Below, in pieces: positions 17,397 through 19,505 of a stretch of 64,000 bases of DNA. This DNA is from an uncultured Pelagibacteraceae bacterium. GTDB lineage: Bacteria; Pseudomonadota; Alphaproteobacteria; Pelagibacterales; Pelagibacteraceae. The stretch covers positions 186,001 to 250,000 of the forward strand of contig CACIMN010000001.1 of assembly GCA_902587755.1 (NCBI GenBank). The letters run 5' to 3'. The position numbers and the translations under genes are program-made. Every line of letters begins with the position of its first letter. Within the stretch, counting starts at the first letter, position 1. The notes under the pieces were generated by a model. It was not told the origin of the DNA, did not search any database, and was given only the letters and a program-made list of their open reading frames with translations.

Positions 17397-17442
17397 TTGG
17401 TGGGCCCGCCAGGACTCGAACCTGGGACCAATACATTATGAG
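17397..17442 (+). repeat. Left 46-bp direct repeat (att-like; duplicated tRNA-Ile2 3' half)
   Basis: TTGGTGGGCCCGCCAGGACTCGAACCTGGGACCAATACATTATGAG identical to 19460-19505. Confidence 0.95.
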
Positions 17443-17504
17443 AGTCTTGTAGGAACTTAAATTAATATTGAAAAAATTTACTATTTATTAAAACATAAAT
17501 TTAT

Positions 17505-17525
17505 TTACACAATTTGGTATACAAT
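17505..17525 (+). repeat. Left internal 21-bp repeat (putative integrase arm-type site)
   Basis: TTACACAATTTGGTATACAAT; 19/21 match to 19367-19387; made of TACACAAT-N4-TATACAAT. Confidence 0.65.
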
Positions 17526-18088
17526 CAACTGTCTAAATTTTTAATATTTTTGCAAATTTTATTAGCCTCCAATAAAGATGGAACCAATTTATCTAATTTC
17601 CAATTGTTTACAGAAATATCGAAATATCTATTTACTTTAAAATCAATACCATCCACAATTTCAATTTCAAATTTTTGAAATTCCTCATAAAATTCATTCA
17701 AAAAGTAGATGTATTCCTTTATTGGAAATTTACCTAAACTAAAAGCTACTCTGTATCCCATTAAAAAAGGTGAAACACTTATTACTTTTGCAGTCAGATC
17801 TTCGCCGTTTAATTTAATAGGAATATTTCTATCTACTAATTGCTTTATGTCACCAGGTTTTTCATAAGTATAAAAAGTAAAATTGTTATGAACTTTTGTG
17901 CAATTGTCCTCTGCTGAAATAAAGAAATTTAAACTATCCCCATGAATTACTTCTCCAGATACTCTTGCAAAAGAAAGATCTTTAAATCTATCAATAATCC
18001 ATTCTTCCTCCTCTGCTTGAGCTTGATAGGCGAATACAATTAAAAAAAGAAATAAGTGAAGCGATATAATAAGCAAAACTCTTTTCAT
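17525..18088 (-). CDS. Hypothetical exported protein (island cargo)
   Basis: 187 aa with N-terminal signal peptide (MKRVLLIISLHLFLFLIVFAYQAQA); starts in a 4-nt overlap with the upstream 61-aa ORF. Confidence 0.65.
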   Translation of the reverse strand: MKRVLLIISLHLFLFLIVFAYQAQAEEEEWIIDRFKDLSFARVSGEVIHGDSLNFFISAEDNCTKVHNNFTFYTYEKPGDIKQLVDRNIPIKLNGEDLTAKVISVSPFLMGYRVAFSLGKFPIKEYIYFLNEFYEEFQKFEIEIVDGIDFKVNRYFDISVNNWKLDKLVPSLLEANKICKNIKNLDS

Positions 18089-18270
18089 GATTTGAGCTCC
18101 ACTTTGTATCCATTTTTTTTAAATATTTTTATGATTTTATCCCAGACTAAACTGTTGTGTTCACCTGGTAATATTTCGAATTTGAATGTTTTTTTATAAA
18201 CGGGGTCGCAGTTATCATACGCAACGTAAGCACTCACATGACAGTACTTACAGACACGGCCTATTTCCAT
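18085..18270 (-). CDS. Hypothetical 61-aa Cys-containing protein (island cargo)
   Basis: MEIGRVCKYCHVSAYVAYDNC; AGGAG Shine-Dalgarno 9 nt before ATG; ATGA overlap with next ORF. Confidence 0.55.
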   Translation of the reverse strand: MEIGRVCKYCHVSAYVAYDNCDPVYKKTFKFEILPGEHNSLVWDKIIKIFKKNGYKVELKS

Positions 18271-18333
18271 ATATTGGAACTCCTATTGTTGATTGATTTT
18301 TTGAGAGTTAAAAGTTTGTAATTGGTTATGGTC

Positions 18334-18410
18334 TCAATCCTTTTCGTTTTGATCGAATTACGCAACAAGGGAGATAACAAAAAAAGCGGAATACGATAGA
18401 AAAGGATTGA
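18334..18410. repeat. 12-bp inverted repeat TCAATCCTTTTC / GAAAAGGATTGA with 53-nt spacer
   Basis: Arms 18334-18345 and 18399-18410, perfectly complementary; between divergent island ORFs. Confidence 0.7.
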
Positions 18411-18505
18411 AATCCAATGCATGATTCCATTTAAATAATAGCTTATTGGTTTTATTTAGACTCAATTTTGTTTAAATAAAGACTTTAGTTTATTATATTC
18501 AAAAA

Positions 18506-18979
18506 ATGGTTTTTGGACTTTTTAAGGATTATAAAAAAATTGCTGCTGAAGGTATAGACGAGGAATTTAAAGCTTTTGAAAAACTTTTAAAAAGTAAAAA
18601 AGGCAAAATAACTCCAGAAGTTTTTAAAAAAGAATATGAAAAGAAACTTTTTTTCAGAAAAGTAAAATGTGACTTAGGTTTGCGGGATTTTGGCTATGAA
18701 TTTGCATTTAGTGTAAATGATGATTATGTGCCATTTTGGTTCTATGGCTGGTTTAAGAAAAAAAAAATTGATAGCTTTGAATTCTCATGCCTTGATGAAA
18801 GATTCTACAATATAGAGGGTTATTTAAGTCTTAAAGATGGTTCAAGATCAATTGCAGTTATTAATAAAGGTGGTATTGGGATGTATGGAGGTTCAAAAGC
18901 ATTAAAAAAACTATTAATAAAAGATTATGGTTTTGAGGATGAAAAAGGTGGCTTTGTAGATCAAGGTAAACATCTATAA
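18506..18979 (+). CDS. Hypothetical cytoplasmic protein (island cargo)
   Basis: 157-aa ORF, no family recognised. Confidence 0.6.
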   Translation: MVFGLFKDYKKIAAEGIDEEFKAFEKLLKSKKGKITPEVFKKEYEKKLFFRKVKCDLGLRDFGYEFAFSVNDDYVPFWFYGWFKKKKIDSFEFSCLDERFYNIEGYLSLKDGSRSIAVINKGGIGMYGGSKALKKLLIKDYGFEDEKGGFVDQGKHL

Positions 18980-19000
18980 AATTTAAAGATCAATTGTTTT

Positions 19001-19318
19001 ATGATAAATACTATTTTATTTGGTATCGGTATCTTTTTCGTTATTGCCTATGCTTATGGTTATTTAAGTAATCAAGAATACAAATCAAATACGATTTTAA
19101 GGACAATAGTTCATTGGATTATGGCTTTAGGTTTTTTTCTAGTTCATGATGTGCCAGCCATTCATTTACTTTATACTTTTCCGTTAGGTATTGGTTTGGC
19201 TTTTGCAGGTATTAAATTTTATCCACGCACTAATCCAATGACCATTCTTGTAGTGTCAGCAATAATTTGGTCTTTTGTATTGATGGGTTTATCTGATTAT
19301 TTTGGAACTTTTGCATAA
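19001..19318 (+). CDS. Hypothetical small integral membrane protein (island cargo)
   Basis: 105 aa with about four hydrophobic segments. Confidence 0.6.
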   Translation: MINTILFGIGIFFVIAYAYGYLSNQEYKSNTILRTIVHWIMALGFFLVHDVPAIHLLYTFPLGIGLAFAGIKFYPRTNPMTILVVSAIIWSFVLMGLSDYFGTFA

Positions 19319-19366
19319 ATAGTTTTTAAATTACTATCAAGACCAATACACTTCTGATTAATTTTA

Positions 19367-19387
19367 TTACACAATTTCGTACACAAT
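19367..19387 (+). repeat. Right internal 21-bp repeat (putative integrase arm-type site)
   Basis: TTACACAATTTCGTACACAAT; tandem TACACAAT-N4-TACACAAT. Confidence 0.65.
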
Positions 19388-19459
19388 AAAAAAATTTTTA
19401 TAGAGTTTTTTGCTTAAAATTTGAAAAACTAAAATTACTAAACGTTGATTTTACTGGAT

Positions 19460-19505
19460 TTGGTGGGCCCGCCAGGACTCGAACCTGGGACCAATACATT
19501 ATGAG
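19460..19505 (+). repeat. Right 46-bp direct repeat (att-like), within the intact tRNA
   Basis: Identical to 17397-17442; covers tRNA 3' end through the anticodon loop. Confidence 0.95.

What the first reader, a model, noticed from the sequence alone, without database searches (positions are those of the whole stretch)
17397..19505. Integrase-less 2.06-kb mini-island inserted in the tRNA-Ile2(CAU) gene
Seen: TTGGTGGGCCCGCCAGGACTCGAACCTGGGACCAATACATTATGAG occurs exactly at 17397-17442 and 19460-19505 (46 bp, offset 2063). The right copy is the 3' half of an intact tRNA, from past the CCA to the anticodon loop; the left copy is an orphan fragment directly after mlaC. Between them are four small ORFs (two minus, two plus) and no recombinase. 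Established: tyrosine-recombinase islands and phages integrate in tRNA genes and leave a duplicated 3' part, with the anticodon loop a known crossover location. Inference: this is a non-autonomous (satellite or tycheposon-like) element mobilised in trans, or a remnant that kept functional ends.
Basis: partly seen in the sequence, partly recalled or inferred. Interest (0 to 1): 0.85.

Follow-up and report, generated by a model that had tools for sequence, protein, structure and literature searches.

The report
Integrase-less tRNA mini-islands in SAR11
A 2-kilobase block of small genes sits in a transfer-RNA gene of a SAR11 ocean bacterium and belongs to a family of tiny mobile elements that carry the DNA ends an integrase needs but no integrase, so they most likely borrow that enzyme from larger islands that use the same site.

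Summary
The 46-bp tRNA 3' half is duplicated exactly at 17397-17442 and 19460-19505 around 2.06 kb without a recombinase. It is not a lone remnant. In the same genus (SAR11, Pelagibacteraceae), 45 sampled loci have the empty mlaC-tRNA junction. Nineteen complete integrase-less inserts of 1.1-2.6 kb were found in this tRNA, in three end-types; thirteen share this element's ends. Their cargo differs and their hosts are scattered on the host tree. Shared inserts are up to 98-99% identical between hosts whose flanking genes are only about 76-86% identical, with the drop at the tRNA core, so the integrase-less unit itself moves. Each end carries two heptamers at a 12-bp period, about 62 bp inside the left core. 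Large islands (at least 18 kb in one case) in four genomes use the same core. Their left end has nearly the same heptamers at offsets 61 and 73, followed by a tyrosine integrase gene. They are the best candidate helpers. One sits in tandem with a mini-island, and a second mini-island array occurs at elongator tRNA-Met. tRNA-tail gene cassettes are known from other marine bacteria, so this is a new variant of a known kind.

The parts
16806..17396 (+). mlaC, left chromosomal neighbour of the site
   Evidence: Pfam MlaC E=5.8e-28; in 45 related loci its stop codon lies within about 71 bp of the intact tRNA
17397..17442 (+). left core: orphan 3' half of tRNA-Ile2 (attL core)
   Evidence: exact copy of 19460-19505, 0 expected in shuffles
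17443..17505 (.). left inner end, shared by class A elements (AGTCYTG..GAACTTAAATTA...)
   Evidence: alignment of 15 left ends
17506..17527 (+). left arm site: two heptamers (TACACAA, TATACAA) at a 12-bp period, about 62 bp inside the core
   Evidence: position matches the GTACTCA pair at offsets 61 and 73 upstream of the integrase gene in the large islands
17525..18088 (-). cargo ORF1, 187 aa protein with a hydrophobic N-terminus, function unknown
   Evidence: 1283 homologues in the protein database; low-confidence model with no significant PDB fold match
18085..18270 (-). cargo ORF2, 61 aa, conserved partner of ORF1
18329..18416 (-). conserved leader hairpin upstream of ORF2 (candidate regulatory RNA)
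   Evidence: 18 predicted pairs, two with both-side changes, one of which is broken in 3 of 7 sequences
18506..18979 (+). cargo ORF3, 157 aa, function unknown
   Evidence: only 6 homologues; no fold match
19001..19318 (+). cargo ORF4, 105 aa, hydrophobic, likely membrane protein
   Evidence: only weak sub-threshold Pfam hits
19368..19389 (+). right arm site: two TACACAA heptamers at a 12-bp period, about 92 bp inside the core
19390..19459 (+). right inner end, conserved in class A (..CTAAACGTTGATTTTACTGGAT next to the core)
   Evidence: motif in 22 of 399 genus genomes, adjacent to the tRNA-Ile2 core in the loci examined
19460..19505 (+). right core: 3' half of the intact tRNA-Ile2 (attR core)
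19461..19537 (-). intact tRNA (anticodon CAU), read as tRNA-Ile2, the integration target

Best explanation
The 17397-19505 segment is a non-autonomous integrative mini-island. It keeps only what a tyrosine integrase acts on: a tRNA 3'-half core at each end and, inside each core, a pair of arm-type heptamers at fixed distance and a 12-bp period. A helper supplies the integrase in trans. The best candidate is the integrase of large islands that use the same tRNA-Ile2 core. The helper would recombine the two cores within the tRNA anticodon-loop region, excise the unit as a small circle and re-insert it elsewhere, always leaving an intact tRNA. Shown here: the ends, the empty sites, the cargo variety, the scattered host distribution, transfer of the integrase-less unit between diverged hosts, and the matching arm layout of the integrase-bearing islands. 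Inferred: that this integrase acts on these ends, the circular intermediate, the exact crossover point, the need for an excision factor, and the vehicle between cells (transduction, vesicles or uptake of free DNA). The cargo would be small secreted or membrane proteins and nuclease-like genes kept when useful to the host; this is also inference.
For: Exact 46-bp duplication. 45 empty junctions with intact tRNA. 13 complete class A elements, 3 class B and 3 class C, none with an integrase. Class A right end in 22 of 399 genomes, ends conserved across different cargo. Arm pairs at +62 and -92 with a 12-bp period. All 27 arm-motif hits in 399 genomes lie next to a tRNA-Ile2 core. Identity inside vs outside the left core: WIN/L134 96-97% vs 78%; L137/L144 98% vs 76-81%; L137/L144 inside the right end 97-99% vs 84-86% beyond the tRNA. 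Class A needs 12 changes for 14 rows on the host tree, at least 11 forced by supported branches. Integrase-bearing islands at the same core in G367, G336, G258 and G010 with GTACTCA at offsets 61 and 73; one is in tandem with a mini-island. A second integrase-less array occurs at tRNA-Met.
Against: No excised circle or attP was seen; reads are not available here. No integrase with arms identical to the class A consensus was found in 399 genomes. Host G000 itself has no such integrase. The large islands' right arms are only loosely similar. Many genomes in the sample are incomplete. Class A ends share ancestry, so their conservation is not fully independent evidence of selection.
Confidence: 0.8

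Rival explanations
1. The segment is a decayed remnant of a larger tRNA-Ile2 island that lost its integrase by deletion and is now immobile, kept only because its cargo is useful.
For: Large integrase-bearing islands use the same core. Solo right ends without left cores exist in G199 and G276, and a clade carries a 1.1-kb gene pair preceded by a degraded class A-like right end, so decay does happen at this site.
Against: The integrase-less unit is found at 96-98% identity in hosts whose flanks are 73-81% identical, with the break at the core. Thirteen complete elements keep both arms at fixed positions. None carries a partial integrase. Tandem arrays with other elements exist.
Confidence: 0.12
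2. Mini-islands spread by ordinary homologous recombination between SAR11 cells using mlaC and tRNA/rpoD flanks, with no site-specific recombinase needed.
For: SAR11 is reported to exchange parts of its genome frequently (PMC7542561). Elements share internal modules such as the ORF1-ORF2 left half, which suggests homologous exchange inside elements.
Against: Identity falls at the core on both sides, whereas homologous transfer would carry flanking DNA. The duplicated tRNA half and the conserved inner ends are unexplained.
Confidence: 0.06
3. The element is moved by the host's own single tyrosine recombinase or by a XerC/D-like enzyme rather than by a helper island.
For: The host genome holds one PF00589 protein.
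Against: That 317-aa protein has no tRNA gene in its locus and is not a relative of the tRNA-Ile2 integrase at E 1e-15. The paired arm sites inside both ends imply an arm-binding integrase.
Confidence: 0.04

Closest known systems
Additive flexible genomic islands: tRNA-tail gene cassettes in 'Ca. Actinomarinales' (PMC7771536) and Methylophilaceae (PMC10872708)
   Same: Small inserts next to tRNA genes, marked by direct repeats of the tRNA 3' end, with presence/absence variation at fixed sites and mostly unknown genes.
   Different: In the passages I read, conserved inner ends, arm-type heptamers, an integrase-bearing partner at the same core, or between-host transfer of integrase-less units were not described; those are shown here for SAR11.
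CIME (cis-mobilizable element; definition in PMC5704250)
   Same: att-flanked unit without integration and transfer genes, found in tandem with integrase-bearing elements.
   Different: A CIME is defined as a decayed ICE/IME. Here many independent integrase-less units move between hosts, no conjugation genes were recognised in the sampled large island, and helpers are mostly absent from the host.
Tycheposons (described for Prochlorococcus; summarised in PMC10872708)
   Same: tRNA-targeted integration of cargo in a streamlined marine bacterium.
   Different: Tycheposons are given as 4-200 kb with a tyrosine recombinase; these units are 1.1-2.6 kb without one. The large islands at the same site are closer to that description.
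Minimal phage satellites such as PICMI (PMC10803314)
   Same: Very small integrated elements in marine bacteria that depend on a helper.
   Different: PICMIs encode integrase, AlpA and primase; these units encode none recognised, and no viral contig match was found.
CALIN / integron cassettes and MITEs (PMC11389934)
   Same: Works alike: cargo or ends without the enzyme, mobilised in trans by a relative's enzyme.
   Different: Recombination sites are tRNA cores with arm sites, not attC hairpins or terminal inverted repeats.

Membership tests
tRNA-targeted tyrosine-recombinase integrative element (as a class) | duplicated tRNA 3' part flanking the insert, intact tRNA restored | tested here: met
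tRNA-targeted tyrosine-recombinase integrative element (as a class) | empty sites in relatives | tested here: met
   45 loci with intact tRNA next to mlaC
tRNA-targeted tyrosine-recombinase integrative element (as a class) | encodes its own integrase | tested here: not met
   no integrase in 19 complete mini-islands; one unrelated PF00589 gene in the host genome
tRNA-targeted tyrosine-recombinase integrative element (as a class) | excision and circular form | not testable with these tools
   needs reads or cells
CIME | attL and attR kept, integration and transfer genes absent | tested here: met
CIME | derived by decay of an ICE or IME | tested here: inconclusive
   large islands at the site carry an integrase, methylases and a helicase but no recognised conjugation genes among the proteins scanned; no intermediate was seen
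Tycheposon | 4-200 kb with tyrosine recombinase | tested here: not met
   1.1-2.6 kb, none encoded
Phage satellite (PICMI model) | integrase, AlpA, primase and Fis genes | tested here: not met
   no such family in Pfam or PHROGs scans of the window cargo
Phage satellite (PICMI model) | packaged in virions | not testable with these tools
   no match in viral contigs, which is weak negative evidence
Additive flexible genomic island (tRNA cassette) | small cassettes at a fixed tRNA with tRNA-fragment repeats and variable presence | tested here: met
Integron cassette / CALIN | attC recombination sites | tested here: inconclusive
   ends are tRNA cores with 12-bp-period heptamers, which does not look like attC; no dedicated attC model was run

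The most novel reading that the evidence does not exclude
SAR11 has a standing pool of cargo-carrying, integrase-less units (the tyrosine-integrase counterpart of MITEs or CALIN cassettes) at several tRNA genes. Each pool is served in trans by rare integrase-bearing islands whose arm-site code (heptamer and 11- or 12-bp period) the mini-islands track, giving streamlined genomes a low-cost cassette exchange system.
Probability: 0.45. Interest if true: 0.8.

Novelty: new variant of a known kind. Interest (0 to 1): 0.62.

Why it matters
SAR11 is among the most abundant cell types in the ocean, and how its streamlined cells gain and lose genes is poorly known; a 2020 metagenomic study of the clade calls its gene-transfer mechanisms unknown (PMC7542561). 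These units offer a concrete mechanism: exact ends, a defined target, a candidate enzyme and a testable arm code. They also suggest that tRNA-tail cassettes reported in other marine bacteria could move without carrying an integrase, and they give a context to genes that annotation lists only as hypothetical.

Tried and rejected
Prophage or pelagiphage origin: exact core, right end, left end and arm motif gave no match in viral contigs, nor did ORF1 or the integrase (such scans find close relatives only). A resident helper in the host: none found in the genome. The cognate integrase by arm motif: all 27 hits in 399 genomes are at mini-island ends, none beside an integrase. Reading every mlaC-tRNA gene insert as an element: 500-bp, 1.1-kb and larger inserts without a duplicated core were set apart as resident genes; a clade of 1.1-kb ones keeps a degraded class A-like right end. 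A fifth ORF at 18261-18422: amino-acid identity falls to 64-66% while a paired hairpin persists, so I prefer a leader RNA. Cargo function by fold: no significant PDB match for ORF1 or ORF3. Rfam: nothing over threshold except tRNAs.

Full report
What was checked. The 46-bp sequence is present exactly at 17397-17442 and 19460-19505, with no match expected by chance. The right copy is the 3' half of an intact CAU tRNA at 19461-19537. A second CAU tRNA in the genome is a separate elongator tRNA-Met, so by elimination and by its sequence pattern (from memory) this one is tRNA-Ile2. The left copy begins right after the mlaC stop codon. Between them lie four ORFs and no recombinase. Two named records with the same arm motif are labelled uncultured Pelagibacteraceae, so the host is SAR11.

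The site in relatives. I took the mlaC-tRNA region from about 80 genomes of the same genus and later from more two-copy genomes. Forty-five loci have the empty junction: mlaC ends within about 71 bp of the core and the tRNA is intact. If the window element is cut out at the cores, the joined flanks look like those empty sites. Other genomes carry inserts. Some are ordinary resident genes with no duplicated core. Others are elements with a duplicated core.

A family with shared ends. Thirteen complete elements share the ends of the window element (class A), at 1061-2623 bp from core to core, with different cargo and no integrase. Their right end reads ..TTTCTAAACGTTGATTTTACTGGAT before the core. 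That motif occurs in 22 of 399 genus genomes, next to a tRNA-Ile2 core in the loci examined. Empty sites lack it, apart from two solo scars, G199 and G276. Their left end starts AGTCYTG..GAACTTAAATTA after the core. Three elements have a second kind of end (class B) and three a third (class C), again with no integrase. Two further class A right ends came from the arm search.

Arm sites. Inside each class A core lie two heptamers at a 12-bp period, about 62 bp inside the left core and about 92 bp inside the right core. The letters vary (TACACAA, TATACAA, ACTCAAT, GTACTCA) while the position stays. A search for the arm motif in 399 genomes gave 27 hits in 16 genomes, all beside a tRNA-Ile2 core and none beside an integrase gene.

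The likely helper. Four genomes (G367, G336, G258, G010) hold an island in the same tRNA core whose first gene after the left core is a tyrosine integrase of about 315 aa (Pfam Phage_integrase). In G258 the island runs at least 18 kb to the end of the contig, with DNA methylases, a BpuSI-like restriction enzyme and a helicase. Between the core and the integrase start codon lie two GTACTCA heptamers at offsets 61 and 73. This is the layout of the mini-islands within one base pair, and some class A arms contain the same heptamer (L136, L135). Such pairs are rare elsewhere: six in 1.1 Mb on both strands, a count that may include the islands' own. Class C mini-islands carry the same heptamer, or it with one mismatch, on the other strand. 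In G258 a class A mini-island sits directly next to one of these islands. The host of the window has no relative of this integrase, and of the class A hosts only G258 does.

Does the integrase-less unit itself move? Yes, by sequence. WIN and L134 are 96-97% identical over the first 600 bp inside the left core but 78% outside it. L137 and L144 are 98% inside the left end and 97-99% inside the right end, against 76-81% and 84-86% outside. On a host tree from three neighbouring proteins, class A needs 12 changes for 14 rows, not clearly more clustered than shuffled labels (77 of 500 as low), and several members have an empty-site sister. Homologous recombination through the flanks would not stop at the core. 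Decay in place would not put the same unit into diverged hosts.

Cargo. WIN shares its left half (ORF1, ORF2 and their leader) with L134 and L140 but not its right half, and class B elements carry the same genes in the opposite orientation. ORF1 has 1283 homologues and occurs at other loci in the genus. ORF3 has six. Other elements carry a NucS-like nuclease, T5orf172 proteins, hydrolases and small secreted proteins. One candidate defence-related hit (PADLOC PDC-S02) was seen in the NucS-like cargo. Function of the window's cargo is unknown. The ORF1 model has low confidence and neither model has a fold match.

A second site. G109 carries a 2032-bp integrase-less unit at elongator tRNA-Met, followed by the start of another unit, so it is a tandem array. 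Its arms are TGACACA pairs at an 11-bp period. Integrases next to tRNA-Met in this genus have TGTCACA pairs, also at 11 bp. So mini-islands and integrases at the same tRNA share the arm spacing in both systems. The tRNA-Met case rests on one locus.

What is known. tRNA-tail cassettes that vary between strains are described in 'Ca. Actinomarinales' (PMC7771536), Methylophilaceae (PMC10872708) and Alteromonas (PMC4119200). CIMEs (PMC5704250), CALINs and MITEs (PMC11389934) work in a similar borrowed-enzyme way. Tycheposons and PICMIs are described with their own recombinase (PMC10872708, PMC10803314). I found no paper in the held library that describes these SAR11 units, but the library lacks most subscription journals.

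Limits. Nothing was tested in cells. Many genomes in the sample are incomplete. Class A ends are related by descent. The helper is inferred from layout and heptamer match, not from activity. The vehicle between cells is unknown.

Noticed in passing
L252 (G109:C18) 1342-3522: Tandem array of integrase-less units at elongator tRNA-Met, unit 2032 bp, with arm pairs TGACACA at an 11-bp period and an ORF1-family gene.
   Followed up: partly
cargo of L136, L143, L144, L145, L065, L252: Many cargo genes start with a nearly identical 39-nt signal-peptide sequence (MKKLLGIVVLGLLL). Nine full copies plus one broken stub (L137) occur in the elements listed, against two in 823 kb of site loci. It could act as a shuffling point between cargo genes.
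   Followed up: partly
18329-18416 (-): Conserved hairpin leader upstream of ORF2, with two pairs changed on both sides across seven sequences (one of them broken in three); candidate regulatory RNA.
   Followed up: partly
L056, L147, L099, L077, L046, L067: A clade carries a fixed 1.1-kb gene pair between mlaC and the tRNA with a degraded class A-like right end and no left core, likely a domesticated mini-island.
   Followed up: partly
L146 (G199) and L148 (G276): Class A right end joined directly to mlaC, apparently a scar left by deletion of the cargo and left core.
   Followed up: no
L091 (G070) 1980-3060: Relatives of ORF1 and ORF2 lie at the same junction in opposite orientation without a duplicated core.
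   Followed up: no
L139, L138, L159/L160: In all three tandem cases the class A unit lies on the mlaC side and the class C or large island on the tRNA side, which suggests an order of insertion or different core needs.
   Followed up: no
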